A stretch of DNA of 64,000 nt from Schistosoma haematobium. Its lineage: Eukaryota > Platyhelminthes > Trematoda > Strigeidida > Schistosomatidae. A program made the translations under genes and the position numbers. Positions 31,701 to 59,200 of the stretch are shown here, piece by piece. How positions within the stretch are numbered: the stretch's first letter is position 1; each line of letters begins with the position of its first letter. The notes beneath the pieces are model-generated. The model was given only the letters and a program-made list of their open reading frames with translations, searched no databases and was not told the origin of the DNA. The DNA lies in the NCBI RefSeq assembly GCF_000699445.3, contig NC_067196.1:80838364-80902363 (forward strand), read 5' to 3'.

Positions 31701-34700
31701 CCGAAAGGGGTTATGTCTCATGGTATAATCTATAGAGGTGATATGTGAACGCGTTCCACAGAAACTCCAAGCTAGAATTAAACGCTATTTAATTCTATTT
31801 GACCTTTAATGACCAGTCAGTTCTGTAAACTACGTATTCTATAAAATAGTTTTTTGGTTGACTTTTTGTGAAGACAAACAAACTTAGCTTTATAAACTAA
31901 TACGTGACAATCTCAATGTTTTCAGAGTTCTATTAGAATTAGCCATCACTTTAGTGTAATGAGTCAATAGGTCCAATCATCTGAATGTATATTCGTATGA
32001 TACATGTAAACACACCTTCATTAACAACCGTATAGTGTTTGGTAAATTACATTTTATTACATTTTATTATTTTTTTTCATAATAATTATGCAAAATCGTT
32101 TTTTAAAATTAATCTTTAACAGATGTCATTGTTATTGTCGCCAGTGTAGTCGTTCTTGCTGTAGACAGTGACAGGAATATGTTTGCAGCAAGTGCACTAA
32201 GAGGATTGAGATTCTTTCAAATTTTACGTATGATACGAATGGATCGCAGAGGCGGATCATTTAAATTACTAGCATCTGTTGTATGGGCACATAGACAAGT
32301 GAGTAAAGGTATTTATATTATTTATTTAAAAACATGATCTCGTTTAATGATTTTGGATAGAGGTACCAATAAGTTATTACGAACAAAATTCAATTAACTT
32401 ATCACTATCTGAAAATTGATATGAAAATGAGGGATTATCCGAACATTTCATTATTATCAAAGCAACCTCAGATAAGTAAATTTATGCAGTTTCACTTGTT
32501 AGTTTTCACTATTGAACTTTAGGTTTGTACTTGACCATCTTTTTCTATAATTCATCCATTTTGTATCACAGATCACTTAAAGGTGTCGTAACTCACAGAA
32601 CACGTATCAGCAAAATGGTCCGTATTGGTCAGTTATTCTGCATTGATCATTTATTAGCCAATATGATAATTCTACATGTAATTAGTCGTGATTATTTAAC
32701 AGTTTCGAATTAATCATAAAGTAAAATGAAAAATTTTACATGGGACTTTAAATGAAATTTTTACGCTGGATTACGTTTCGATTACACAGAAAATTTTCAG
32801 TACGAGTAACACTCAAAACAAACATGTGTCAACGAGGGTAGATATAGTCATTTTCAACCAGATTCCAAAGGAATTACGGGAAAACTTGCTTCTCATTTGA
32901 GTAGCAATGAACCTATGTGCGAGATTTCCAACCGGTTCCCCCCAAGGAAAAAATATAAAAGTGCATGAGATATGATATTGCAACATTTAGCTCTAAAACT
33001 CACGTAATATGATATTATTAACTACAATATTGTCAGTTATTGTAAACCTATTGATAAGACATACTGTTATGGCTAATCCATTACGGGTTAATAAACGATA
33101 CATAATTACTAAGTCATTCTTGTTGAGTACAAGTGTTATTTAAAATATCAATGCTGTAAAAATATTTGAACCTTCATGTAAACATTATTGGTCATAAAAC
33201 GTTTGCACATAGTTCTTGATAATGACTATCAAGGAAGTAAAGAGATTAAATTTCTGAAAAATCATTCTTTCATATGTTAAAGACAGATTTTACGCTATAA
33301 ACAAATTACGTAATAACACTGTTGAATACCGGCTCAGCGGTTTACAGGTTAAGCGTTCGTGCTCAAGATGGAGAGTCCTGGGTTCGAGTCCCATGTGCAG
33401 GATCGTGGATGCGTACTTCTGAGGAGTCCCATATTAGGACGAGTTGGCCATCCAGTGCTTCCAAATGTTTCAATGGTGGTCTAGCTCTTATCGACTCATG
33501 AATTCAAATATTGTAGTTACTACAATCTCCACAAACCTACGTTTCGAGAATTTGTAATAAAAATAGAATAACAACACTATAGGCAGTTTAAATTTAATAT
33601 CATTAAAAAGAATTAATACTGAAGAATAGGTTGCTTTTCTGTGCACGGAAATGCGTTACATTTCAATTTCCATTAGTTTGTCATTGCATTCGCTCGTCTA
33701 TTGCAAAAAAACTAGTTACAAACTAATTTATATAGACATTTATGATTGGTAATCTTGCGATATATACATATTCGTGATGCATTATTCCATGAATATAGCA
33801 TAACGGATGATTATTTCATCTCAGATAAACTGAGACGGAAAGGCGGTGACACTAGTGAAAATAATAATAATTCTACAGATAGCATCAGTCTATGATTCAA
33901 TAAAATAAATCTCTACATAATCATGTGATGAAATAATTATCAATAATTTACGTTTGGTTTTAATTTTGTTAATAATCTTCCCATTTATTTATTCCCCATT
34001 TATTTTTTCATATGCATAATAAGCAAAAAAGAAGAAGCATATATATATCATGTACTTACTTATTTATGCCTGTTACTCCCAATGGAGCATAGGCCGCAGC
34101 ATTCTCCAACCCACTCTGTCCTGGGCATTCTTTTCTAGTTCCATCCAATTCTTGTTCATTCTTCTCATGTCTCCATTTCCCGGCGTAATGTGTTCTTTGG
34201 TCTTCCTCTTTTCCTTTGGCCTTGAGGATTCCATGTGAGGGCTTGTTTTGTGATGCAGTTGGGTGCTTTCCTCAATGTGATATATCATGTACAGTTCACT
34301 CTATACCAATATCCCTCTGTATAATATGAAAATAATCGATCATATCTGTGTTTATTATAACTAATCCGATTGTTATTGTCCCTATTGTTGTTCTTCTTTC
34401 CTATGCTTATATATTTATCCAATAAATTTCTGTTATTTTTTTGTTTGTTTTTATATTTCATAACTTATCTACAATATTACGTCATTGGATTACATTTAAT
34501 CTTCTTTATTTTTTTTCTCTTTGGTCTTTTCATTGTGTTTTTTTATCATTATTTATTTTTCTTTATTTAGGAATTATTCACAACGGTGTATATTGGGTTT
34601 TTAGGTCTTCTATTCAGTTCATTCTTGATATTTTTAGTTGAAAAGAAAGAAAATGAAAAAATTCGTACATATGCAGATGCATTATGGTGGGGTGTAGTAA

Positions 34701-35185
34701 GTTAATTATTTATTTATTCCTGTATTTATTTATTTATAGTTCATCATGTAGATGTTTAACTTTTCATTACAGTTAGTTACTAAGTTACTTGATTAATTAT
34801 TTCTTTATTTGAAAAATTCCTTTCATGTTTCTAGTTATAATTATCATCGATTTTCTGTTGTGTTTGTTTTTATTTCTTCATTATAATTATAATTCCACTT
34901 AATGGATAATAAGTTTATGATGTTTTAAGTAAGACAGTTTAACTATTTTATTGCATAAAAACAAACATAAATTTCAACAGTCTAATCTATATTCATTGAA
35001 TAATCATTAAGTGGTAACATAATTCTGAAGTGTTATAAAGAGTTGAGTTAGAAAACAAAACCCACATGTTATTCAAGATTTGGATAAAATCAATCGAAAA
35101 GTAGGTTTGATGGTTACTTCAATGAATGATATTCAATGATCTATATGAGATTCAAGAAACATTCGATGACAAATACATATACTAT

Positions 35186-35227
<42 letters not shown>

Positions 35228-38200
35228 CCTTTTCTACTGTCTACATTCATTTCAATGATTGACTGATGCATGATTTTATTAAAAGCTCAATGAACTATAA
35301 ACTTACTGGATAATTATGATAATTAACTTCTTGTAATGAACAGATATGATCATGCAATCATTGATAGACTCAATTTAAAATAATCGTTTGTTATAATTGG
35401 TAAATATCTTTGACAACAAATATATATGATTGGTATACTTTAACTATTCCTTATTAGCTGAATAACTTTTATATTAGTAAACAGTCAAATATATCTTGAT
35501 AAATAATACACAATCTCTACTGTTTTTGTTGAAATACTCATCAAACTATTTTCTTCATGAAATATACTGTTATAACTTGTGGCCTTGTGCCCTATTAATA
35601 TATAACATAATGTTATTACCAATTAGAGAACAGTGATTTGTCAACCGGACCAATGACGCGTAAACCTGTGCGAGCAGTCTAGAGTCCTTATCGGTCCTTC
35701 TTCCTGCCTATCTCTGCCTGTTGAGTTCAAAACACCAATCTCAGCCTCTGCGATATAAATCATATATTTAAGACATACTGGGTTTATATACAAACCAAAC
35801 AGAGTACATCGCACCACAAAATAGAAAACAACATTTGCACAAGATCTAGCCAAAAGTGACTGTGAATGTGGGAGATCGTAATTAGTAGACTTGGTGTACC
35901 TAAAGAATGGCAATATTCTATGAGTCAAAATAAAGCTTATAATAAGAGGAAAATGAATATGTATATTACAGGTACTTAACAATTATACAGTGAAATTATA
36001 TGGATTGGTGCATAAATAGTTCCCAAATGTTACCATTCATAATTCTCGATGGGATATAACATGTACCTACAAAATAATACTTGCTTTCATTGTTACAGAT
36101 GAGATAGATTTATTCTGATCCAGTTCAGAAAACTATAGGCATTACAATACATAATTAACTTTTATTTATTCAGCGCTTACTAATGAGATTCAAAGTGTTC
36201 AACTAGTTAGATCTCTACAGAAATGTACAAATAAATACCAATGTAACTGTAATTTCACGAAACTTTCCATAATAATCCATAAAACGGATTAATAATGTGA
36301 ACATAATCAACGATTTTATGGAAATTCTAAATTAGTAGATAAAAAATCACAACGACTGATTCTGGACTATATTCCAGTTTATTTACAGTCTTATAATTCA
36401 TTCCTAAACCACTGACATTGAGATTGATCTAAATGACTTAGCTGCTTGATGCCAGAAGTAAGCAGCTGAATTCTTGCAATCTCTTTATATTAGCTACTTT
36501 TGAGAGAAGTAAAATACTTCGAAAAAGAACACAAGTGGAAACAGTCGAATATATTTGAATACACAATGACAGAATATCTTAGTAAAATCTGTGAACCATG
36601 AAATAAATTCATTTGTGAAATGTTAATCAATCGTCTGAGACTTCATTGTTCCTTCGTTTTCACACCAATCATTCTCTGTTCTCGTTCTTTTTTCATTGAT
36701 CTTCCTAATCTTCTACCGCCAGGCATTTTACTTTCGATTGCTGTTACATATTACTTGTATCTGTCGACATCAGTAGTACACACTACAATGATATACAAAT
36801 GCGGTAAATGTTATATTTACCAGGAGCACATTTCAGTTTAAATCTCACATATACTTTTAAATATTCGGTTAAGTATACACTCGAACTGTTAATAATAATT
36901 AATTCCTATAACATGACTGATTAAAGTAAACTATGTAAATTATGACATCCAAATAAATAAAATGGATATTCTATCAATACGTTTGAATATGGGTTTTTTT
37001 TTCTTTATTCTTTTGTTTATATTAATTAATTCGTATTGTTAACAAACAAAAAAAAGAGCGAGGTAAGTTTAAAATAAGAACAAATTGACATTTTCTCCTC
37101 ATTATCATGTATTTGTATAGAAAAGTAAACATTATACATAATGATTTTCTTCAGAAATTATATATTCTATAATTAACAAATGACATTGTTGAAATAGAAA
37201 TCCTCTTCATTAAACTAACACATTATGTAATACGAGTAATGATAGAAATTATATGGACTATATAATATAAACATGGTGAATTAATCTTCTTTTACGATTA
37301 CAATTTGGCCGATCAATACAATCTTGTACAATATTTCATTCGTCAGCACTTTTTTACTGAATATATAAAATGATTGGATTTTACATTGTTTCTTTTATAA
37401 ACGATTATAAATGAAGAAAACTGTAATATAGATTTATATTTGTTAATCTATATGCATATGTATATATGTATACATCTTTTAACTCTCCCTTTCTCCTTAC
37501 TTTAAATACATAAATTAGATAACATTATGTACTGTAGGTTATGGTGATAGCGTACCACAATCTGGTTTGGGCAAAACTATTGCAGGATGTTCATGTTTGG
37601 CTATAATATCTTTCTATGCCTTACCACCGGTAAGCGAAATATCAGCATAATTCTCATCATTTTAGGACAATCCAATATAAATATATATAAACATTCATAA
37701 TATAAAGAACAGAAATATATATATATATCCAATAGTTTTGGAGTGATTCATCAACAGTTGTCCTCAAAATAGAAAATAATAAATCACAATAAATAAATAA
37801 ATAAACCCAATTGACAAATAAAGTAATATCAAACTAATTACAACATCTACCAATCTATTATATAGAAATATATCTTCAAACATTTTATGATATGTCTTAA
37901 TATGATCATCCTAAGTAATAGGCTAAGTTTTAGTTTGATATCACATATTGGTTAAGTCATTTTCGATTGTCAATTCCAATGGTGATATGTCCAAAAAAAA
38001 GTGTTTTCATTTGTATTTTATTTTAAATTTAATTAAAATGATACTGAAAATACATAGAAGATATACTACTAACAAAAAAAAGCTAAAGAATAATATGTAC
38101 AATTCTCACATTTAGATTGTTTAACATTAACTAATCTTTTTAAATTGACTTATGATTTCAACTATTGAAATTACTAAAATCTTCACAAAACCTCTTCTGA

Positions 38201-41200
38201 TAATAATCATCTGCTCACTAGTGATTGACTTCAAGAGGCATTTCTTGGAGTTCTAGTGAGAATTTGTGACCAATGGAGTTCAACCAGGTCTGTTGTGAGA
38301 TATCAGCTCATTGCCTTTATCAATTACTCACAAGTAACCTTGAGTATGTTTTATGTGTTTACATGATAGTATGTATGTGTTTATTCACATTTTACATTTC
38401 CTACATGCCTTGTAAAAATTGAGTCATCTTATTACTGTTTCAGTAGCTGTATTACCAAACCCCAATGCTTTACTTATTCGTAGTATCTTTTATTACTTGT
38501 TTGCTTTCCAAAGTTAACATATCTGTGATATATGTATCCTTAAAACAATTCGTATTCAATTTTGATATGTTGTCTTAAGTTGACAAAAATTATACGAGGT
38601 TCAGTAGGGTATATATTTATTATTATCATTGTTGTCGATTATATTGGGCTTAGATAATTAATAATAAAATGACAAGCCTGATATGATTGCTGCAATCCAA
38701 ATTACAGCTGCTCCTGTGGAGAAAGCTATGTTGGGTGCACGACTAGACAACTGAGCCAAAGAGTTAGTGAACACCTCCCTTCGTGGTTAGGAAGAGGTAA
38801 CATCAAGACAAAACGCAGCTCGGTTCTATCACACCTGATAGATAGCGGTCATCTAGTGGACAGAAACAAGTCATTTAAAGTTATTTATCGTATTCCTAGT
38901 AGTTTTCCTTATGGTGTTCGATCTCGTCTCTTACACAAAGCAGAATCTATAGGAATTCGAGCCAACAACCCAAGTCTTTGTGTTCATAAGAAATTTGTAA
39001 CACCCTTATCTTTCCCTTGGCCTTAATAAATAATTTTATTTATTATTATTTTCCACACTCTTTCTTCGTCTATTTTTCTTCACACCCTCCCACCCTTTTC
39101 TTTTCTCAAATATACGCTTCACGGTCCAATTATCTGAACACCTCCTATTACGCAATCTTATAATCTTTCTATGAATGTTATTTCAGTGCTTATATTTTTC
39201 TATTCATTGACCTATTCCCGATTATGTAACACTGATTTAAGTCTTTGTTATTCTTATCACAACTAGTGCTCCTGTCATCACACTATCAATTTGCACTTTT
39301 CACTTATTTATGTCATCTATTCCTTTGTTACCACTGCCTCATAAACTACTTTGATTGGTTTAATAATTTCATATATGCATATAAATATTACTGAATATTA
39401 CAGTAAAGCCTGATAAGGATCTAATCGAAGACAATATTGTTCGGTCATATCTATGCTGTTCTAAATTACACCTAAATGAAGATGTCAAGTGTTGATTCAT
39501 TTTTTAATAATTTCTAAAAATTCACTAAAATGATTAATGTGAAACATTGTACTTGAAATAGTTAACATTTTCACATAGTCAAAAAGACTTTGTTTTTGAT
39601 TATCAAAATTGACACAAATCACTTATTCAATAGACTACATTGTCCGTTTGCTTCCTGTTTCTATCTCCTTATATTTAACTGCTTATTATTTTATAATCTT
39701 TGGGTATACATGTGTAAATCTGTAATTAGTTAGTTTTTTTTATTTCTTTTTACTTGATCGCATACTAATTACCCATTAGTTAATTCATCATATAATTCAG
39801 TCCTCACACATGAACTGATATGACATTTGAAACTTTCTTGTCTCTAATCAATATACACCCAATATGGTTTGTTTCCATATTCAAGAAATAAATAAAATGA
39901 TAAGTTAATTCTTCAAAATGAACTAAAATATCAAATACGGTAATTTTATATTATCAGAAGGGGTTTTGTGAAGTTTTTAGAAATTTCACTGGTTGAAATC
40001 ATGAGTCAATTGAAGTTAGACCACCGTTGGAAACCTGGAAGCACTGGACGGCCGTTTCGTCCTAGTATGGGACTCATCAGCAGTGCGCATCCACGATCCC
40101 GCACCCCGCGAGATTAATAAATATTTTCATTATGTTTAAACGATAATAGAATATTCTAGTCTTCTAATTGAAATATGAATAATCTCAATACTGAAAATAC
40201 TTCATATTTTATAAATTGAAATTATCCTTCCATTTACATTAACCGATCTTGTTGTTAAAGATAAATAATATTTCAAATAACTAGGCCTATAATATTACAA
40301 GTGATTGGATTATTTGTCTCATGTTTAAATCTTTGTACAAAGCTGTATTGCTTGTTCTTGTATTTAGAAAAGTATCACAGTTGGTATTGATCCACCAGTT
40401 ATACGACTGATTGATTAAATTTACTATGATGGATCTTTCAACAAAAACTCAATGTTTATTCTCTATTTTTTATTATTTGTAACTTTACATATGAAGTATA
40501 GTACTTTCTATTTACGATATCTCTACTATAAAAATCATTCAATTTATTAAAATGACAATTTGTACATATATTTATATTTAATACATAAACACTTGTACAA
40601 GTGGAAATAAAATATAAATGCACCACATAATAAAACTAAGGTTGTAAAGAGATAGAGAAAGGATAGTGAGTACAATTAAACGAACAGAAATGAATAGAAA
40701 TTAGTATCTATGCGTAAAATAATAATAACAGTGGAAGTATCAGTTCTATTAGGGAAAATGCAGCCAGAAAAGAACTTACTTCCATTTTTATGAAGAAAGA
40801 AACAGAAAGTTAAAGCGGGATCGCCACTGGTTTCTATTCTGAGCCATATCTGATAACTTCTCAAGCAACGGTGTTATACTATCAAGAGAACCCAAAAAAG
40901 AGTCGTAAAGGATAAACAGAATCCAGTCCTGTATAGTCTTTTTTCAAACCCCGACACCATCTCATACACTGACCATCTCTCCGTTTTCTCCAACCGGTCC
41001 TGGAGTTGGAAAATAATGCATGACGTGGTTATCGCCGGCACGACATTTGTAAGATATGTCTAATACACTGAAGTCTATGTTTCAAGACGGTGACATAATC
41101 TAAATTACCGTCACTGTATCCGAACACACGTTCTCGAACCTCTGTATTACTAACATAATGATGTCACTAAATGTTGATAATTATCCGGAGACAACGATGA

Positions 41201-44200
41201 TCAAACACAGAGTGTCATCTAGCATCTTCAACTTCGAGAGGCCGAGTTTCAAAAGGATAGAGCAAAACTGCTCTCACAGACAAGTTGTAGAACCAATCTT
41301 TTACAGCCAGACTAACATCACGTAGGCTCCGAAAATGTCATAAATTGGTATAACCAACTCTAACTTTCACTATACATGAATTTATCTCATACCTCACGCC
41401 ACCATCAGCACTTACTCAGCTACCGATATGCACGAACTTCTCGACTACTTCTATCTGTTCACTACCCAGAATTAGTAGGATCCTCCCAGTCTTGTAAGAT
41501 TACTTTATACTTAAGAGATGAAAAGTATATGTCATACTGACGGAAACTGGTTGCCAACTGAAAACGCGTGGATTGTATGGATTGGGCATCATCACAACAT
41601 AACAAAATATCATCAGCGTAATCAAGGTCGGAATGTCTTTCTCCAGACAACAGAGCCACAACGCCATTACTTACACCGATCAGAGTTGTTTCCAGGTGGT
41701 AATATTGAAGAGGAATAGTGAGATTGGAAAACCCTTCTTAATACTACTGTATGAATGAAGCAATGGAGAGAGGTCGTTGGATGCCATCACTCCGTCCGAG
41801 GTATTTGCATATAGAACTTTCAAGATGTTAGTAAACTTTTTAGGTAGACCCTTTCTCAATCGACAATCTCAGAAAACAGTTCTGTCCAACGAATCGAATG
41901 ATGCTCGGATGTCAAGAAGCACTACGCTTATTGGCCTGTGATAAGCATGACAGTGTTCTGACATTTGGTGGGGGATGAAGATATGATCAATAGATTCTCG
42001 ACCAGAACGAAAATCAGCCTGCTTCTCTGAAGCCAGTCTTTAAAGTGTTCTGGACAATCTGAGAAATATAACGTAGCCTAATAGTTTGGACGCAGTCGAG
42101 AGAAAATTAATCCTCTGATGGCTGTTGCATAGGTGACGTAAACCCTTTTAAAATATAGGGACGAATATAATTGCATTCCATGATGTTGATATACTCTATA
42201 GTTGCCAAACGTTTGCAAGCAACTCAGTCAGCTCCCTAAACAAATGGTTGCTTTTATCCTCTAAAAAGGCTAGAGGTAGTTTACATAGGCCTATTAAGTT
42301 ATGGAGCCCCAAAACTTGCTGTTCCTTGAGGATTTTCACTTCGTTGAGTGGATCAGTCCTCACCGTCCAAAAAGGATGGGACAGTTTGATCGATGACGAC
42401 TACTATGACATTTTCGACGATTCAAAAGTATCGTAGGTGTTAAATAGTAAAAAAATAGTTGCATTTACATACTTTATTACAGCTAAAGTAGAGAAACTAA
42501 TAATTTCGAAGCATGTCACAAATCCACAATCGGTTATTGAAATGTTTGTTTAGGGAATTTGAGCTAAAACATAGTTTATCTGTATGCTGAAAATCAATAA
42601 CCAAAAGAAACATTTCCTGGTGGATAAAATAGAATGAAGATGATGTTTAGCTTGGTAAATAATTCACTTGATCGTTTGAGTGTATCAGCGACAGGATGCT
42701 TTTTTACAGTACCAGTTATTAGAAGTCAGTGGTCTGCTTGAATATCCAGGCAAACTGTTCCTATCATCTCGATATCTCAACAAGCTATCTGTTTTCTTGT
42801 TTGTTTCAACACATCATTATGTCTATTGGGCGCACAACCTATTCAGGCACGCTTCTGAAAAATTTCGCAACATTTCACTGTACAGGTTACGAAAAGGTAC
42901 AATCAGCGACATCGTGGTTGCTGGCAATATGCATTGAAAAGGATGAACATTATTCAGATGTCGATTCTCGAACTGCTAGCATCTAACTGGCGATCAATCA
43001 ATATTTATCGTCAGGATCGATCAAGAAATAAGAAAAGGAAACATATCATAGATATTATTGATTTTTTGATTTTATCTTTTATTGATTTTTTTTCATGTAT
43101 ATTTCTTGGATAAGATTAAAGAATAATGGTGTTCATAATAATCACTATGCCTATATTGATCTTTATATTATTTTATCTTATTCTGAATAGAATTCTCTCA
43201 AGTTGATGTTTGCTTTTTTTTTGAAAAATTATACTTTGTTACCAGGTCGAATGAAATTTCATCATTATTTTAGTTTTAAACACCGTTTGATGTTATGATC
43301 TGATATTCTTAATAGAAAAAAACAAACCCGGTTCATTCTGATTTAAAATTCGATTAATCAATTATTTATTCTGAGATGGTGGGGAAGATTTGTAGCTCAG
43401 GTGGATGATTTTGATGGAGTCTTGTTCTCTGGGCTCCCAAATCCCCTGGTATGGCCAAGAGTGGGGTGGGCCCGCCCTCCCTCTCGAAATACTCTCACAC
43501 GGCCACGCGTATATAGCCTCTGCCAAGGAAGTCCTACCCACTGTCTTCTCGTGGCGTGGGTGTTGTTTACGAAATCGAGAGTATGAAAAGCGAATGTCTG
43601 GCGCTTTAACCGGATTCCAAACCAGTGGTGCACATGGGATCCAGTATCCTGTAGGAAAAAATGGCGTATGAACCTATTTTCGGTCACCGGCTACCATGGG
43701 ATGCTCCACTGCCTTGTGGATCAGACCTTTAGGCCAAAGGTACTGGGTGTGGGCCCCTAAGAAAACCACCTGCTTCGGTCTGGGCACCCGGGCAGTATCA
43801 CAGCCCTCACACAAATCGAATGATTCATGTGGCGCATATCTATTCGGTGCCTCCTTGTACCAATGTTTATGTGTTAAAAAAATCTCTGAGCTCTGAACTT
43901 CTGAGTGGTCCTATACTAGAACGAAATGGCCATCCAATGCTTCCCGGTTTTCCATGGTGTTCAAGCTTCAATTGACTCATAAATTCAACTATAATATTAC
44001 TAAAATTTCTACAAAACCTCTTCTAACATTAATATTAGTTTAAATCCTTTTAACTATTTATTAACTTCTAACCAACATATAATTTGTTTTGTCATTTTCT
44101 TGATACACTTATAATTCTATAATATAAATCTTATTTTTAGTTGTTTACTTATCTTAGGGAAAATTTAAATGTCAACTAAACTTGTAGTTTATGCTTTAAA

Positions 44201-47200
44201 AAATAACAAACAAAAAAAACCCATTTTAAAGTGATTTGGGTAGTTTGCAATTAGTATTTAACATTCATTATTAAGTTGTAAATATAAACACTTTATAGAA
44301 CTAAACGATTATCTAAAGTAATTAACTTACGGGTTGATTAGTTAGATTAACAAAGTAATTTGATAAACTTCTACTTGAAGTTTATACTGATGACAGAGGT
44401 TTTGTCGTTCAGAAGAGCGATGAAAGCTCCACCACAAAACTATTCAGCTCAGAAAACAAAACTTTATCACAAAAGAATGCCCAATAATTGCCTCACAGAT
44501 ACTGAAATAAATTAAATAATTTTTGTAACAGTTGAATTCATGAGTTGATGTAAGCTAGATCACCATTGAAAACATGAAACACTGGACGGCTTTTTTGTCC
44601 TAGTATGATACTCCTCAGCAGTGCACACCTACAATTATATGAGTCATATACTAAGATGAAACGGTCGTCTAGTAATTCCAGGTTTTTAATAGTGGTCTAA
44701 TCTAGATAGATTCATGAATTCAATTATTAGAACAACTACAATCTCGACAAATCGTCATTCTGAAAAGAAGGATTTATCAACAATTTAATTTTAATAGATT
44801 GAGATCATAAACCGATTGATGTTAGACCACCGTTGGAAAACTGGAAACATCGGTTCATGATCTCAATCAAAAACTTAATAATCTCCACAATCCCTATGCT
44901 GATAATTAACATGTGCTCACTAATGACCAGCTTCGTGAGGGAATTCTCGGAGTCTTAGTGAGAAGCCGTGACCTGTGGAGCCGATTCGTGTCGAGTAAAG
45001 GCAGGTATATACCTCAGTACAATGGAAGATGGTCGAGCAATTTCGTGGATTGGTTGATGCTAGACACTAACATCATTGGATGCCGGCTTAGTGTTCCAGT
45101 AGGTTAAGCGTTCGCGAGCGAGACTGAAGTCCTTGGGTTCGAATCCTGCGAGTGGGATCGTGGATGAGCACTGCCGAGGAGTCCCACAACAAAACGAAAC
45201 AGCTGTCCAGTGCTCCCAGGTTTCCGACGGTGGTCTAACATCAATCAGTCCATAATTTCAATCAAAACTTAACAATCTCCACAACTTCTATACTGTTAAT
45301 TTTAATAGTTTTTTTCCTTCTAAAACTTCTTAATAATATCCAACTTGAATAGTGAATAAATTCTATACTGAGTCTAAACTATACTGCCATCTTCTTAAGA
45401 AACGTTTTGAAAGATTCAACTGTTTATTCAATTCTTCATTCATTTTTTTTGTCTTAATTCTTTCTTTCAATTTACTCATCAGATTACTCTTTGTACAGTC
45501 GGTTATGGAGATACAGTGCCTAAAACATGGATGGGGAAAATTATTGCAGCATTTTGTGCATTGGCTGGTATCTCATTTTTCGCTCTACCTGCTGTGAGTT
45601 TTTATTCATTAAAAAAATTAATCATTTAGTGATTCACACATACAAATTCTCAACTATTTCTATTGTGTAAATTCAAATGAAACTAAAATAATAAACACTT
45701 TTAATTATTAATGCTTCATTTTAAGATAATTAGATATGTAGTTTAAGCAGAATGGGTTTAACATTACAAATAAATAACAAATAATAGTTGATAATATAGT
45801 GAAAGATTTACTAATAATGACAAGCAGAGTACAGTTAGTTTTTTTTAAATAAACAAATAAACCAAAAATCCAGTGACCTTCACAACTTGAAATCAAGATT
45901 AATACAAATGATAAATATTTCAGTAAAGGGGTGTGGAGATCATGAACCGATTGATGTTAGACCACAATTCAAAACCTGGAAGCACGGGACGGCCTTTTCC
46001 TCCTATTGTGGGACTCCTCAGCAGTGCGCATCCACGATCCCACCCGCGGGATTTGAACCCAAGGCCTTCATTCTCGCGCGTGAACGCCTAACCTACTGGA
46101 ACACTGAGCCGGCATCAAATGGTGTTAATGTCTAACCTCAACAAATCCACGAAATTGCTCGACCATCTTCCATTGTACTGAGGTAAATACCTGCCTCTAC
46201 CCGACACGAATTAGCTCCACTGGCCACGGCTCTCACTAGAACTCCGAGAATTCCCTCACGAATCTGGGTTCGGATCGCGCGAGCGGGATCGTGGATGCGC
46301 ACTGCTGAGGATTCCCACAATAGGACGAAACGGCCGTCCAGTGCTTCCAAGTTTTCAATGGTGGTCTAACATCAATCGGTTCATGATCTCAATGATAAAT
46401 ATTTATTTAATACTGAAGGATGAAATGGATAGTAAATTAACAGGATATCTTAAAATGTCCAGTTAGTATAGTTAGAGAGAACTTCAATGAATTTAAAGAG
46501 GAAAGGTTTATGTACATTCTACACGGTAAACAAACCATAGTTATAGTCAAGTTTTGTTCACCCCTATTTATCGAATACTCAGAGATGACATTCTGATTGT
46601 TTATCTCATTTCATATACAATTGCATTATGTCATACTTGATCAACAATAACTATTCATTACTTGTTGAGACGAAATTAGAATTTATCTCTTACAAACCGT
46701 AAAAGTTATACTAGTTCCAGCCAATAACCATTGTTTTCGTATTGGAAAGAAGTTTTTAATATATCTTAATAACATTTTCCCTTTCATTTGATGACTGTTG
46801 TTTCACATGCCTTCTAAACTTCTTTTATTGCACTATATTTTTGTGTCATCTGACTTTAATGACTAGAATTTTTGACCTATTATAAACTTTCATGCAATTA
46901 TTCCCTAATTGATATTAACTTCAATATGTTTATCATTAAAATAACCACTGTTACATCTATCATCAGGCCACACTTATTTCTTATCCTAAGTTTACTATGT
47001 TACCCTACATATATTTGGTTTAAAACTTTACATAGATAATTAAGAAATATCTTAGGTTTATATAATTGAAGACATTGTTATTCGGTTACATAAGCCATCA
47101 TTACTGTATATGTTTTGTTTTACTGTTCCGAACATTTATTCAGATGGTTCATTAATAACAATCACCTTTAACTTAAATTATAACACTTCCCAATCTAATA

Positions 47201-50200
47201 GTCAAGAATGTATAGTGTTACTTCACTTTCAGCTACAAATTAAGATAATAGATGAATCAACATTTTGCACATGTTAAATATAGTTCTGTTAGAGTTCATA
47301 ATTTCTCGAATGTTTACTTAAACGTTTGTTATTATGATACCTTTAAAAGATTTAATTATTTAATATTAAAGATCATGAGTCAATTAAAGCTAAACCACCA
47401 TGAGAAATCTAGAAGCATTGGACGGCTGTTTCGTCCTAGTATGGGACTCCTCAGCAGTGCACATCCACGGTTCCGCCTCTCGGGGTTCGAGCTCAGGACA
47501 TAACGGTCTCGCGCGCGAACACTTAACCTCTATATCATTGAGCTGTCTAGCATCCAATGGTGTTAATGTCTAACTTCAACTAATCCACGAAGTTAAGCCA
47601 CACGTCCACCATTGTCTTCAATGAGTTACTATCTCACAACAAGCCTATTTGAACTCCTCTGGTCACTGCTTTTTTTCAGTAAACAAAGTGAATTGTCATT
47701 TTGATAATCTTTTAATTTACAACTATAAAACTTTAATATTCAATATCTCATTACTTTTGTTCATCATTGTACATTTAATTTACTATCATATCTTCCAATC
47801 AAATCATTTCTTTGTAAGTCCGTCTTGATTTGACTAAGTAGCATAAAATGAATGGTAAACGAAATATTGTATAAAAATATACCAAATATACTATACATAA
47901 GATAATGATAAAAATAATGACAATGAACAGAGAAAATTTTTTATTTAATTGAGATCATGAATCGATAAGTGTTAGACCACCATTGCAAGCCTGCAAGTAC
48001 TGGATGGCTGTTTTGTCCTAGTGTGGGGCTTCTCAGAGGTGCGTATCCACTATCCTGCATGCGAGATTTTCAATGGTGGTTTAACATTCATCGATTCATA
48101 ATCTCAATCAAAAACCCAAAAACATTAGCAAGTCAAGTCGATAAAATGGATGAATTGTGATTAACAAAGCAATTCACGTTTTTTCTTATTTGAGGCTTAA
48201 AGGCTGAGTATATATGAATCCCTGTGTTAATGTCTATAATGAGACTCGAATCCAGAACCTTTCGCTTTAGGCATCAATACACACTCAGTTAATGATGATT
48301 ATATAAGCAGACAAAAGTCAATACATATTATATTACATCATAAGGTCACTGAATGAAACGAAGGAAAAATGATATAGGACAAAAATATAAATATATTACA
48401 ATACTGATTTATCGTTGGACAACTGTTGTGAATAAAACTCCAAAACTTCTACGGATATTCTCATAGGAATCAAATTTATGATTGTATTTATTATTTATAT
48501 ATATATGCCAAATTCGAATTTTTTTTTGTTTTTACTAATAATGGGCAAGTTAATGATGTAACTTCTATATTAAACGTGTCAATAATATATTGTTATCTAC
48601 TTAAACAGATTGACATATTTATTATTCCCAAAATTTGAAATTTTTCAGGAATTTTACATCCGTAATTCAGAGATTTACTTGTAGTGGCTTAGCTTCCATA
48701 ATCAATTACTTTGATAATCGTTATTATATAAATCCTAGCGGTGTTTGAATTCAGAAGTCAATAAGAAGCGGAAACTGCAGTTTATTAGCGAATAACACTG
48801 ATAACAAATTTACAAGCATATCGAGCGAATTGAAGCAGAGAAGCTAATGTGTGAGCGAGCAAATACAGAGGTAAATTGATAGTCAAATCGAATCAAGGCA
48901 GAGATAGATACGACAAAGCAAAAGCTATTAATAGGATTCGAGCACATATATACATGGTAAAGAGAGTGACCGATTGAGCAATATTTAAGCTATCAACATT
49001 TAACATAGAGAGATATGTGCAGAAGCTGTCACATGTGATCAAGTATACGCAATCATACAGACATGATAGTGATCATAATAGAACAAAATAATAGACGAAT
49101 TGTTACGGTCCGAATAACAATATCTGTTAAATAAGTTAATAAAAGTGCATGAAAGAAACCGAACTTAATCGCAATAAATCATAGGAGTGTTGCTTCATTC
49201 TGAATAGATTTCAATAATGAACAAATGTGTAAATATATTTGTTCAAGTCATGCATTTAAATGATTGAAAACTTAAGTAAGATGTGATGATCTATTGGGAG
49301 AGACTATAATTTATAGACGAACCAATCAGGTATAAGATAACAGGTCTCGGATTTCAGTGCGAAATTCACTAATCCAGTTGGTTAAATCGAGTTTTCACAT
49401 TATAACTGATGTCAGTTCGTGATCAAAACCATAAAATCTAGTTTTTAACCCTAACCATCAATTGTAAATCATAATTGTAATTCCTCACACTGGTTTATAA
49501 CCTTCATTTGATTCTGGTTATTAAGTGAACACTCTCAAGTCCACTTTAGAATCACTCAAAGGTTGTCCATAAATTATAGTCTCACCATCTAATGAACTTT
49601 AGAATGAAGATCAATAAATTGTGTTTAGTTCCAAGTCATTTGAACTTACAAAATCTTTACCGGAAAGTTAATGAAGCAAGTGAACTAAATGATCACTCAA
49701 TAAAAACAAAACAGATTCATTAAAAATTCACGGTAGACAATTGTTAGTTCATTTTAATTTATACCAAATTAATATTAAATTTTTGTTCAAGATTTAATAA
49801 ATCCACAAATTCTGATTTTGAAAATATCTCCTATATGAATAATCAATAACTGATAGTGTCTCCAGAGTATTACTTGTCATTGAACCGTTGTATTATAATC
49901 AAGTTTTTACATTTGCATTACATTAATTATATTGAATTTATTTCAAAGTTGAATAACCGATTTTGAAATACTTCCAACTGAAATTGATTTACAGTAGTTT
50001 ATCGCAGTTACTACAGTTATCAGGACCAGTGATTTGTAAGTGTAACGAGCTCATTTTTTATGTATGAATACAACATGAAAATACTTGAATGAGATATTAT
50101 TACCGATTAGCAGAAAAACAGTCTCTTAGACAATACATAGTATAGTAAGAAACAGCAATTACAACACATCTTGTAAGAAAAATAGATATGGGTAGAAAAC

Positions 50201-53200
50201 AACTAATATAAAACGGAATCTGATATAGTATTTCCAATATCAAAACATATAAAGAACAGATTACTTACAATCAGAAACATAAGGAATAATCATAAATATA
50301 GCAGATACATCTAGCTGACGAGTCCAAAATAGGACGAAACGTGCGTCCTGGATTCCACTGCTAGCTACTATCCATTTTTGCTTATAAAGCTTGCGACTTC
50401 AGGTAATATTGAGGCAGTCCACACAGGATGCACATATGCCAACAAGAGACTAATCGATTGCAGTCCTAAATAACAATGGGAAGATACAAGTGAAACAACA
50501 AATGAATATAGAAATAGATAGTTTAAAGCGATATTGGTATTTTAGTCATAAAGAGATGAAACCAACCCACTGTTAATTCAACCAGATGGGATTAGCTCAA
50601 AATATAAAACAACAACTAATTAATGGACTTTACAAAATATTAAACTTCGAACATTAAACGGAATAATCTATTAATTTAATTTCTGTAATTAGATTGTTCA
50701 AACTCAGTAATTGGTTAATATTAGGTCAACTGCAAGACCTGTAGGTTTGTGTTGAATTGTTTAGTGGTTACTTCCACTGACTAACAGTCGAAAATAGGAA
50801 TCCTTTGTAGTGTTCATTGGTTTCAAATAATACTCTAGATAATGTCATTTAAATGTAAAAATATCTTGTTAATCGATCAATCCAGTGAAAATTTGAGTTT
50901 TCTAACAAATGTCTATGAAAAATCTCAAATCCACATAGTCTTTTAGCAACTATGATATCATCCATATTGAATTCAATAAGATACACAAAAATTACTGATC
51001 AAAATACCTCCATTTTCTCTTAAGTATTAGCTAAATATTTTGGGATTTTAATATTTTGTTTAAAACACATTGATAGTTTTATGGTATAGTATTGAGTAAT
51101 GAACGGAGAAAAATACCCTACATATATGTAATTCATTAATTCAATTTCAATTTCAGGGTATATTAGGTAGCGGTTTCGCTCTCAAAGTTCAACAACATCA
51201 AAGACAAAAACATCTAATTCGAAGACGAGTTCCAGCTGCTACATTAATTCAATGTTTATGGAGATGTTATGCTGCAGATCCTCATTCATCATCCGTTGCA
51301 ACATGGAAAATTCATATGAGACCTATTAGGAAACCTGTTGGGTTTGTGGAAATAATTTTGTTTATAATAATGTTTTTTTATTTAAAAAAATAATTGTGAT
51401 TAATACATACCTTGTTCAATTTGACTTCTTAGATCATCAATCTCATTTTACATCTAGAAACCAATAATAGTTGTACACTAATGTTGTGTAACTTTCTACA
51501 ACTGACTGGTTAGTAAATATGAGTCAATAAAAGTGTTCATTTACTGAAAAAAACTCGAATAAACATCATTCATAGAGACTAATTCATTTAGATGAATTAA
51601 TCTTCCACAGAAACTGAACTTACTTTAACCTTCATTGTAACTAAGTGAATAAAATTTTTTTCCCTTCCATCTTATTATTTATTGAATATTTTATAATTTA
51701 TCCTATTTTATATGTAGTTAAATGTATATTTGTTGTTTTCATTTCAAAAATATCGAATCAACTGAATATATTTCTTAGAAATAGAGAACATATGGAAAAC
51801 GTAAAGACTAAAAAAACCCTAAGAAGCTACAACAAATAAAAAAACCTATTTTGTATTCAACTCAAATTTAAAGGTGACTAAAAACTGCATTGACACGAAC
51901 TTATCCTACAGCTAAATTGATTGTCCTGTTCAAAACAATATGTTATTTGACACAATCAAAGGTTGACAGGTATCCCTTTCATGTTACCATCAACTGTGTA
52001 TACAAATTTACATGTATCTGCCAAAGCAGCTACATTGGTAGACCAGAAAGGAAAGCCTAATTCCGATTCAAAGAACATATTCCGAAGAGTTTAAGATCAA
52101 ACGGGTTAAAAGCATTCTACAGTGTCATCGCAAGACATCTCCTTGACACAGGACATGAAGTCGATACACTGAAGTCCTTCAAGATGAATGACAAGCAATC
52201 AAACGTCTAAAACCCGATCTATTTATACAAAAAGAGACAGTAATAAATCTTTCTTTGCCCTGGTAACATTAAACCCCTTCTTTTTATTGATTATTTATTA
52301 CGTCATTCATTATTCCAACTCTTTCGGAAGTTTAAAATTACATCATTCATAACTGACTGATTCCAATTCATATCTTTCTTTATTACCATTAATCTATTTT
52401 CAGTTACTTGATTACATAATCATCTAATGTTTGTTAATTTAATCAATTATTATCACTCTTTCAATGTTCTAGAACTTTCCCTCCCAAACTATATTCGAAA
52501 CAAATTTTGTGTGACTTAATTAACTCTATTGAAATCTTCGCTACATCATGATACACATATATTCATCTTTAATTACTCTTGTATGTATAAGTATGTCAAT
52601 ATCTGCGATAACGTTAATTTCAAAATATTTTAGGTTGTAAGCAACTGATGAGAACTTAAAGAAATAAAATGAATTCATATTATTCTGCACCAATCTTTGT
52701 TCTTGTTCTATTTAGGATAATAAAGGGAATTATATGTATGAAATATATTTTTATTAAATAACAATATATACTACTTATTATTTATTTATTCTACATCTAT
52801 AATCATTTATCATGATTCTAATTAGATATTCTCGTTTTATATATTAAATTTACTTAATTCAACTACTTTAATATTATTTCAACCCTTGACATAGTTTGCA
52901 TAAATAATCCATAATTTCCAATATTTTCCTGTAAAACTCATAAATCTACTAGTGGTTTGATTGTTTATTTAATGTTTCTTTTTTAGGTTAAACTGTAAGT
53001 GAATTATTTAACGACTTGACTTAATAATTATTGAAATCTTCCTTTAATAATTCCATACTAATAGTATATAGTGTAATACAAATGTATTTCGTCTGGAACA
53101 AAACCTTTCAAGCTTATGACTTGATTCAGTAGAATAGTTAATAAACTTTCCATGAAAAACATGATCTGCATAGTACACTTAATTTGAATTATTTACTTAC

Positions 53201-56200: not shown

Positions 56201-59200
56201 TTTTTTCGGTTATTAACCGTTAGAGATCTAATTACATCATTAACGTAACTGCCATCGAATAAGTGCTGAACAATTTAGCCGCTTAGAACTGTGAGACATT
56301 TTAGCCATAAATTCTTTGAAATGTGCTTGGATATAATGAAGTTTACTCTTCTCTTTATCATGTTTTCTAACTGAGTGAAGTGAGTCAACAATTTCCAAGT
56401 CATTTTAGAAGTTCCCTATTTTCAGTCCTATGGCTAAACTTAACTCTAAAGAAACTAATGAAAGTTTTATAAATAAGATAATTGATCTACTAAAATCTAC
56501 TCTAATTTCTGCATATTTTCTATTCTTGTTTTATTCACCCTGAATTCCTGTTATAAGACTTAAATTCATTATGTCTTCATATTTAAATTAAGATATTATG
56601 AAATAGGTTGTATTCAAATTCACTTGGTAGTGTTTACTTGAATCTACCCATTGGTGTTTCGGACTGCAATTGATCAGTCAACATCGAGGCAATACGCACA
56701 GTATGCACATATGTTAATATGAGACTGATCAATTGCAGTGCTAAACATCAATGGGAAGATTCAAGTAAATAATATCAATTGAATTTCAACTTCACTCCAT
56801 CTCACAAGCAAATGGCTATCAGGATTCAGTAGCTAAGTGGATTACGCGTAGGCGTTTCTAACGAACGGTACTGGGTTCGAGTTCTAGAGTGAACATCAAC
56901 TCTGAGATGCAGGTACATCTAAAATGTTCAGAAAGAAAAGATATATTCATTGAACTCATAAGATTATGATTATTATTAAAACTTCATAAATTCTATATAT
57001 TTTAGATTAACTAATTCATATTCAATGACTGAACGAAGTGCTTTTTCTCGATTTGGTCGATTTTCAACATTAAAACGTCGTTCAGAAAAAACTACTTCGA
57101 ATACAAATACAAACATTAATAACATTGCTCTTACTATATCAACAGATGATGAAACACCGAAATCTGCACCTGTTAAAAGTGAAGATTTAGATGGTATTTA
57201 TGCATTTATAAATGATGAAGATACCACAAAGTAAGTGAATTTTGGTTCTAATCTTTTATTTTTATTTATGGCTTATATTTTTGTTTAAGATTTCTATCCA
57301 CAGTATAGACCAGTATATTTAATTTACTAAATTTGATATCAGTACTATAGAATATTTGTTTTAGTAATTAGTTTTAAAAAAATTAAATAATTTGGTTACC
57401 TTTTAAATCCAGAATATTTGGGTAGCTAAAAATAATCTACTGTAAAATAAAACTGTGAGATTCTAAAGAAGTGTAATCTTATTTTGAACATGCATTTCTG
57501 TGAACTTAATGTATAAAATAATAGATAATAAGTATTAATGGGCCTGATACATTACTTACTTACGCCTGTTACCCCTGATGAAAGAGCATAGGCCGACTAT
57601 CAGCATTCTCCATCCAAATCTGCCTTGGACAATCCTTTCCAATTCTTTCCAGTTGTAAATCATCTTTTTCATGTCTGCTTCAAATTCTCGACAAAATGTG
57701 TTCTTTGGCCTTCTTCTTTTTCGTTTTTACTTCACGATTTCAAGTTAGAACTTGACTCGTAATGCAGTTTGATGATTTCCTCAATGCGTATACTATAGAT
57801 TTGCTGAATCTTTTCCTAATTTCCTCTTCGTATGGAAGTTGGTTTGTTCTCCTCTATTGTAGGCTGTTGCTGATAACATCTGACCAACGGACATTGAGTA
57901 TCTTACGTAAACAATTGCTTATAAATACCTGTACCTTTTGGTGATGGTTATGTTAGTTCTCCAAGTTTCAGCTTTGTACAGTAGAACTGACTGTCTTGAC
58001 GTTGGTATTGAAGATTCGCACTCTGATATTGGTTAGGTCTGATACATACATGTGTCTATAAAACTTTAATTGGTCAATCGATAAGTTTTGAAAATACATA
58101 AATGTTAATAAACATTTTTATATGTATCAATGCCAATGTTGGACATACTAGTTTCAAATAAATTGAGCATTAATTGAAACGTTAGTAACAAATATATTCT
58201 ATTTTATTTCCGAATGAGTAGAAAATTGCGATCTTGACATTTCGTGGCCTAACAGTTATTTATTTACTCTGAAGATGTGGCTTGCATTAAGTCACGAAAC
58301 ATCAGAATTACAATTTTCTGCTCACTGAGACATAACAAAAAATATATCTATTATAAATTTTCATACTTCCGTTTGCTAATTTTAAAGTAAACAGTTTTTC
58401 ACTCAATTATCCTTCCATTAACAGACCATTTCTGACGTAGCATAAAAAGAGAAATTGTTAATAAGAGAACATAATTATCGTTTCAAATTCTATTATGCTT
58501 CTTGTTAAATTACAAAACTCTGCTAGTAAGCTTCAGTGGAGTAGAGAGTCTTATACAGGCCCTCTACCAGAACACAACTGATCGAGTGAGAGCTCATGGC
58601 AAACTGTCATCAGATTTGATTACCTCAAGTGGTGTTCATCAGGGCTGTCCAATTTCCCCATTCTTGTTCAACTTTGTGGTCGACGTACTTTTAGAGATAA
58701 CACCCTCCTCATCTAAATTTCCAGGGGTTGAACTTCTACCGGGAGATTCAATTGTTGACTTGAAATATGCTGATGACATAGTTTTATTTGGCGAAGACGC
58801 TAACAAAATGCAGAGTCGTCTGACCACTCTAAGCAACAATGCAAGCATGTTCGGGATGCGATTCTCCCCCTCAAAATGCAAAATGTTGCTTCAGGATTGG
58901 GTTACATCGACACCCGAACTAATGATAGGGAGTGAAGTAGTTGAGTGTGCCGACCGCTTCACTTATCTTGGAAGTCTCATCAGCCATTGTGGTCTGGTGT
59001 GTGACGAAATCTCAGCACGGATACAGAAGGCTCGACTAGCTTTTACCAACTTGCGTCATTTATGGCGTAGGCGAGATATCCGTCTATCAACAAAAGGACG
59101 ATTTTACTGCGCAGCAGTTCGTTCCGTCCTACTTTATGACAGTGAAACATGGCCGGTAAGAGTAGAGGATATTCGTAGGTTACTAGTATTTGATCATAGG

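What the first reader, a model, noticed from the sequence alone, without database searches (positions are those of the whole stretch)
37519..45593. Two in-frame pore/S6 exons of one KCNQ gene, apparently mutually exclusive
Seen: two 111-nt exons, 7.85 kb apart, both phase 0, both with AG/GT sites and both encoding [10 protein letters not shown] plus S6. Known: a KCNQ subunit has one pore loop. Inference: splicing chooses one, so one gene could make two channel types differing in filter flank and S6. I do not recall alternative pore exons for KCNQ channels, so this may be undescribed.
Basis: partly seen in the sequence, partly recalled or inferred. Interest (0 to 1): 0.88.

Follow-up and report, generated by a model that had tools for sequence, protein, structure and literature searches.

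The report
Alternative pore exons in schistosome KCNQ
A blood-fluke potassium-channel gene carries two interchangeable versions of the exon that builds the ion pore and gate hinge, both kept almost unchanged across schistosomes, so one gene can probably make two kinds of KCNQ channel.

Summary
In detail: two 111-nt phase-0 exons (A 37519-37629, B 45483-45593) with intact splice sites each encode a KCNQ filter plus S6, between the S5 and helix-A exons of one gene. The gene spans at least 78 kb, and six of six pieces tested match a public S. haematobium KCNQ protein exactly. Exon A is constrained: in 9 named schistosomatid species whose records hold it, 8 have all 37 residues identical and S. 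rodhaini 36, while the linker is only 51% identical between Trichobilharzia regenti and S. haematobium. S. intercalatum records hold an A and a B protein that differ only at 13 exon positions. The filter is identical; both S6 hinge segments and cavity residue F340 differ, so the switch should tune gating and pharmacology, not ion selectivity. Exclusivity is inferred: tandem A+B stays in frame, three species' gene models join A and B, and no RNA was available. I saw no description of alternative KCNQ pore exons in the listings of my paper searches. A 296-nt inverted repeat encloses exon B, a possible splice regulator or an accident. Verdict: real; new variant of a known kind (NALCN has alternative pore exons).

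The parts
37519..37629 (+). Exon A: alternative pore/S6 exon, [37 protein letters not shown], phase 0, acceptor TTAG, donor GTAAGC
   Evidence: found in records of 9 named species
45483..45593 (+). Exon B: pore/S6 exon of the usual KCNQ type, [37 protein letters not shown], phase 0, acceptor CAG, donor GTGAGT
   Evidence: present in public S. haematobium protein P0017
19634..19724 (+). KCNQ S1 exon
   Evidence: residues present in P0017
29498..29624 (+). KCNQ S2-S3 exon
32123..32298 (+). KCNQ S3-S4 / S4-S5 linker exon
34571..34696 (+). KCNQ S5 / pore-helix exon, upstream neighbour of A
51157..51341 (+). KCNQ S6 end / helix A exon (starts with the G of the PAG hinge), downstream neighbour of B
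57006..57230 (+). KCNQ C-terminal linker exon ([11 protein letters not shown]...INDEDTT)
44964..45259 (+). Left arm of 296-nt inverted repeat (86% complementary) enclosing exon B; contains a hammerhead ribozyme match 45168-45213
   Evidence: predicted hairpin
45936..46231 (-). Right arm of the inverted repeat enclosing exon B; contains a hammerhead match on the - strand 45982-46027

Best explanation
The window holds most of a KCNQ (Kv7) gene of (most likely) Schistosoma haematobium in which the 111-nt pore/S6 exon was duplicated. The two copies are used as alternatives between the S5 exon and the helix-A exon, giving an A-type and a B-type subunit that are otherwise identical. Shown: both exons are intact, and exon A has been kept under strong purifying selection in Schistosomatidae. 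Supported by annotation only: transcripts with A and without B. Inferred: that exactly one is chosen per transcript, and that the choice is regulated. Both isoforms keep the TVGYGD filter, so both should be K+ selective. Exon A changes the outer-pore position after the filter (W to G), both S6 hinge segments described for KCNQ channels (positions 332-336, and PAG to PPG, KCNQ1 numbering) and cavity/fenestration residue F340 (to Y). I therefore expect A and B subunits to differ in gating and drug sensitivity, and to mix in tetramers.
For: Intact splice sites and frame. Exon A identical in 37/37 residues in 8 of the 9 named species whose records hold it and 36/37 in S. rodhaini; between T. regenti and S. 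haematobium the N-terminus is 59% (105/178), the linker 51% (87/170) and the tail 35% (90/254) identical, so 37/37 by drift at the linker rate is about 2e-11. S. intercalatum P0006/P0018 are an exact exon swap. A-only proteins in S. bovis, S. intercalatum, H. americana, T. regenti, S. mekongi, S. rodhaini. Exon A keeps 15 of the 16 positions that are invariant in 41 other unique pore segments. Pfam KCNQ_channel and Ion_trans hit both isoforms. Both models give the same pore helix 344-356 and S6 helix 368-428. Hinge roles: passages of PMC7584456 and PMC12589563.
Against: No RNA was available. Three public models join A and B in tandem (S. curassoni P0003, S. mansoni P0124, T. szidati P0123). 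Neither frame nor intron length forces exclusivity. Exon A breaks one otherwise invariant position, F340; it scores lower than B against Ion_trans_2 (38.6 vs 54.3 bits) and Ion_trans (102.2 vs 114.9), and its pore is modelled with lower confidence. The listed S. haematobium, S. japonicum and S. turkestanicum records carry only B, though cluster representatives may hide A forms.
Confidence: 0.8

Rival explanations
1. Exon A makes a non-conducting or strongly altered regulatory subunit: A-type proteins assemble with B-type ones and damp or reshape the current, so the splice choice sets how much KCNQ current a cell has.
For: In 41 other unique pore segments none has C333, I336, Y340 or P344; these occur only in exon A and its S. 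rodhaini variant. P344 adds a second proline at the PAG hinge where S6 bends to open (passages). The C-terminal part is the same in both isoforms.
Against: The filter and 15 of the 16 invariant pore positions are kept; nothing measured. The 41 segments come from best-match lists and are not a fair sample.
Confidence: 0.25
2. Both exons are spliced in together, giving a subunit with two pore/S6 modules.
For: Tandem gene models in S. curassoni, S. mansoni and T. szidati; A+B is open in frame.
Against: A-only and B-only records exist, including both from one species. One more pore/S6 would change membrane topology and put the cytoplasmic C-terminus on the wrong side (inference). A predictor without RNA would include both good exons by default, so the tandem is the expected artefact (inference).
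Confidence: 0.05
3. Exon A is a decaying relic of an exon duplication that is not used.
For: Its branch in the pore tree is very long (3.68).
Against: 37/37 identity across Schistosoma, Heterobilharzia and Trichobilharzia; intact splice sites here.
Confidence: 0.02
4. The inverted repeat around exon B (296 nt, 86% complementary, exon B in its loop) controls the choice in S. haematobium by hiding or skipping exon B, letting exon A be used, or by making a circular exon-B RNA.
For: Repeat and predicted stem. Among pairs of 40 nt or more in 34697-51156 (20 found) none encloses exon A.
Against: Such pairs arise from abundant repeats: 5 pairs (2 of them parts of one palindrome) of 150 nt or more within 2 kb in the 164 kb examined. 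Short A+T-rich pairs of 25-35 nt do enclose exon A. No RNA data, and conservation in other species was not testable; the exon pair is older than the genus, and these repeats may not be.
Confidence: 0.15

Closest known systems
NALCN alternative pore exons 15a/15b and 31a/31b
   Same: Duplicated exons swap part of the pore, including the filter region, in one channel gene; mutually exclusive in snail cDNAs; reported in flatworms (passages of PMC3557258).
   Different: Four-domain channel, where one domain changes and the filter charge (E/K) changes. In KCNQ all four subunits can change, the filter is identical and S6 hinges change. The same paper says Schistosoma lost exon 15a of NALCN.
Cav3 T-type exons 12a/12b
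   Same: Duplicated exons in the pore region of an invertebrate channel (passages of PMC4436565).
   Different: Code for the extracellular turret region; by that paper they do not involve the selectivity (HFS) site.
Tandem duplicated exon substitutions of ion channels generally (slo, cacophony, para, CACNA1)
   Same: Same architecture: homologous adjacent exons that replace each other; enriched in voltage-gated channels (section 16 of PMC9741552 read, other passages seen).
   Different: That section names no KCNQ gene, and the 4 'KCN' words counted in the held main text are accounted for by KCNMA1, KCNAB2 and KCNIP4 in the passages shown; its supplements were not seen.
Vertebrate KCNQ1-5
   Same: Same subunit plan; the KCNQ1 pore row aligns without gaps with exon B. 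That a human exon has the same borders is recalled, not tested.
   Different: C333, I336, Y340 and P344 were not seen in the fetched set outside exon A and its S. rodhaini variant.
Strigamia maritima KCNQ1-type protein P0007
   Same: A public model carries two tandem 37-residue pore/S6 units with the same borders; the upstream one also lacks the W and the last alanine.
   Different: Falls in the KCNQ1-type half of the pore tree, schistosome A in the other (100/100, with the tool's warning of few columns and long branches), so probably an independent duplication; one gene model only.

Membership tests
KCNQ (Kv7) channel | Ion_trans and KCNQ_channel C-terminal domains | tested here: met
   Isoforms A and B of S. 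intercalatum both above Pfam cut-offs; 6 of 6 window/flank pieces match S. haematobium P0017 exactly
KCNQ (Kv7) channel | Best solved relatives are KCNQ channels | tested here: met
   Isoform A: the first 26 of 60 shown (138 in all) PDB sequence matches are KCNQ1-5. Isoform B model: the first 37 fold-search rows are KCNQ channels, but TM-scores are low (0.37-0.51 by target length) as most of the model is disordered; isoform A's model was not searched
KCNQ (Kv7) channel | PAG hinge in S6 | tested here: not met
   Met in isoform B; isoform A reads PPG. Some other KCNQ proteins read PSG, so this does not exclude membership
Mutually exclusive exon pair | Neighbouring homologous exons of similar length, same phase, compatible splice sites (criteria in title and passages of PMC3228551) | tested here: met
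   111/111 nt, phase 0, GT-AG, 24/37 residues
Mutually exclusive exon pair | Every transcript holds exactly one of the two | not testable with these tools
   No RNA; public models disagree (A-only, B-only and tandem)
Mutually exclusive exon pair | Exclusion enforced by frame or a short intron | tested here: not met
   Tandem and double-skip forms open in frame; intron 7,853 nt. All sites are GT-AG and look U2-type by eye; no U12 scan was run
NALCN-like alternative selectivity filters | The two exons differ in filter residues | tested here: not met
   [10 protein letters not shown] identical in A and B

The most novel reading that the evidence does not exclude
Schistosomatids lost the second KCNQ gene that other flukes keep and replaced subunit diversity with a regulated exon switch that exchanges the whole filter-to-hinge module, including both S6 hinges, in their only KCNQ gene; the first pore-exon switch in the Kv7 family. 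In S. haematobium a 296-nt RNA hairpin around exon B could help to set the choice.
Probability: 0.35. Interest if true: 0.8.

Novelty: new variant of a known kind. Interest (0 to 1): 0.66.

Why it matters
KCNQ channels are drug targets (recalled), and this gene is the only KCNQ locus that two searches of the worm's genome found. If it makes two pores with different gating, screens against one isoform would miss the other, and exon A, which I saw only in schistosomatids, would be a parasite-specific pore. It also offers a natural experiment: evolution fixed a double exchange of both S6 hinges, which can be tested directly by recording A, B and mixed channels.

Tried and rejected
Considered and rejected: nested separate gene (A lies in order and frame between KCNQ exons); chance match; exon A derived from the second KCNQ type of other flukes (A is no closer to it: 22/37, against 22-25/37 for the other flatworm pores listed); exon A as KCNQ1-type (tree). 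The age of the duplication could not be resolved: 37 columns, very long branch; the tree draws A beside a copepod row (87/82), which I do not trust. Splicing-factor motif counts near A and B gave nothing usable beyond 3 TCTTTT in 300 nt upstream of A, against 0.25 per 300 nt in the window. Scorpion P0004 also shows two pore units, but they are identical with sequence between, probably an assembly artefact. Structure models had low overall confidence (mean pLDDT 47.7 and 47.3; 10-residue means in the transmembrane part 40-89) and say nothing about function. Paper searches: bore on this or near questions, 60, 75, 76 on others; I saw at most 20 listed papers of each (of 50, 33, 123, 218, 16, 1 and 5 for the first seven) and none described alternative KCNQ pore exons. 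In two papers looked into, the Drosophila KCNQ paper PMC3168433 has no word beginning splice, exon, isoform or alternative, and PMC3681755 has KCNQ only in its references. Supplements and most subscription papers were not searchable. The three protein searches show only the best 120 of 5876, 5768 and 1375 matches, as cluster representatives, so absence of exon A in other flukes is weak evidence. Of the 264 proteins held, 5 have two filters: P0003, P0004, P0007, P0123, P0124.
Full report
Observation. Exon A (37519-37629) and exon B (45483-45593) are 111 nt each, phase 0, with AG and GT borders, and translate to 37 residues that begin with the same ten residues [10 protein letters not shown]. 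They agree in 24/37 residues and 72/111 bases; 22 of the 39 base differences are at third codon positions. A degenerate filter pattern matches only these two places in 64 kb.

The gene. A tblastn query places exons for S1, S2-S3, S4, S5, pore A, pore B and helix A in order on the + strand. The N-terminal exon lies about 13 kb before the window (near G000:C2:80825000) and the helix C/D exon just past its end, 78 kb apart. All six pieces compared, including exon B, occur without a mismatch in the public S. haematobium protein P0017, while the S. bovis and S. intercalatum proteins differ in 6 of 178 N-terminal residues, so I take the window to be S. haematobium. Two searches of the 400-Mb genome, with this gene's S5-helix A part (19 matches) and with a second-type KCNQ of Clonorchis (23 matches), find KCNQ-level identity (56-98%) only at this locus (4 of 19 and 7 of 23 matches); all other matches are 23-48%, three places with stops. 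Only best candidates are scored in such searches. Other flukes have two KCNQ types: two proteins each of Cryptocotyle and of Clonorchis, and one each of Fasciola hepatica and F. gigantica, 49-70% identical between types over the aligned parts. The second type thus appears to be lost here, as judged from one assembly.

Is exon A real? Public proteins hold exon A in 9 named species: alone in S. bovis, S. intercalatum, H. americana, T. regenti, S. mekongi and S. rodhaini, and joined to B in S. curassoni, S. mansoni (UniProt A0A5K4EQ12, whose model also drops the V before exon A) and T. szidati. It is 37/37 identical in 8 of these 9 and 36/37 in S. rodhaini. The listed S. haematobium, S. japonicum and S. 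turkestanicum records carry only B. Between T. regenti and S. haematobium the N-terminus is 59%, the linker 51% and the tail 35% identical; at the linker rate the chance of 37 unchanged residues is about 2e-11. Exon B is equally constant (37/37 in the S. haematobium, S. intercalatum, S. curassoni, S. mansoni, S. japonicum and T. szidati records, 36/37 in S. turkestanicum). Neither exon looks like a relic.

How is it used? S. intercalatum P0006 and P0018 (longest contig 90,650,280 bases listed for both) differ in 13 of 996 residues, all inside the exon: an exact exon swap. A-only models skip a perfectly good exon B, which a predictor without RNA hints would have no reason to do; this is an inference, as I did not see how these genomes were annotated (one search listed one paper, not on this). 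Exclusivity is not built into the frame: S5-A-B-helix A and S5-helix A are both open. The A-B intron of 7,853 nt excludes crowding. What decides must be regulators or RNA structure. One candidate: inverted-repeat arms 44964-45259 and 45936-46231 (296 nt, 86% complementary, 676 nt apart) enclose exon B, and the stretch folds into a long hairpin with exon B in the loop (-604 kcal/mol, no shuffle control at this length). Each arm carries a hammerhead-ribozyme match, in opposite orientation. Five pairs of 150 nt or more (2 of them parts of one palindrome) occur in the 164 kb examined, so the enclosure may be accidental. Of the 20 pairs of 40 nt or more in 34697-51156 none encloses exon A; several A+T-rich pairs of 25-35 nt do (25 of 31 shown).

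What changes in the channel? The exon ends at the A of PAG (P343-A344-G345 in KCNQ1, from PMC7584456, passages), and exon B aligns without gaps to KCNQ1, so it covers KCNQ1 308-344. The filter is unchanged. Differences are at 318, 321-324, 327, 330-333, 336, 340 and 344. PMC12589563 (passages) describes two S6 kinks in KCNQ channels, at 332-336 and at PAG, and names F340 as lining a fenestration pocket; PMC7584456 (passages) reports constitutively active F340W channels. Exon A differs from B in 332, 333, 336, 340 and 344: both hinges and the pocket. Of 43 unique pore segments in the fetched proteins (best-match lists, so not a fair sample), 41 are neither exon A nor its S. rodhaini variant; none of these has C333, I336, Y340 or P344. 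Exon A keeps 15 of the 16 positions invariant in those 41; F340 is the exception. Models of the two isoforms have the same pore and S6 helices, with lower confidence for the A pore. I conclude that the switch most likely tunes gating and pharmacology; whether A conducts well is open.

Comparison. Alternative pore exons are known for NALCN and Cav3 (PMC3557258 and PMC4436565, passages), and tandem duplicated exons are common in voltage-gated channels (PMC9741552, section 16 read). The papers listed by my searches showed no alternative KCNQ pore exons (see tried and rejected for what was seen). Alternative S6 variants of Shaker are recalled from memory; the listing showed none. The centipede Strigamia has a public model with two tandem 37-residue pore units in a KCNQ1-type gene, on the other side of the pore tree from the schistosome type (100/100); a search with it brought no new protein with two filters among the 120 listed of 1375.

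Verdict. Real and conserved; alternative use very likely; strict exclusivity and function untested. New variant of a known kind.

Noticed in passing
window 44964-46231: 296-nt inverted repeat pair enclosing exon B, each arm with a hammerhead ribozyme match; could promote exon B skipping or circular RNA.
   Followed up: partly
window 40041-40086, 45168-45213, 45982-46027, 46299-46344, 47415-47460, 50309-50353: Six Hammerhead_1 (RF00163) matches in the 18 kb searched (34000-52000), three on each strand; probably the hammerhead-bearing repeats known from schistosomes (recalled).
   Followed up: no
G000 (own genome): Only one KCNQ locus found; the second KCNQ type of Clonorchis, Cryptocotyle and Fasciola has no counterpart in two searches.
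   Followed up: partly
protein P0007 (Strigamia maritima): Public KCNQ1-type model with two tandem 37-residue pore/S6 units, the upstream one divergent (lacks the W, ends ALPS): likely an independent alternative pore exon annotated as tandem.
   Followed up: partly
proteins P0003, P0123, P0124: Public models of S. curassoni, T. szidati and S. mansoni KCNQ join both pore exons in tandem; probably annotation errors worth correcting.
   Followed up: no
window 58475-59278: 267-codon open frame on the + strand that reads like a non-LTR reverse transcriptase (by eye).
   Followed up: no
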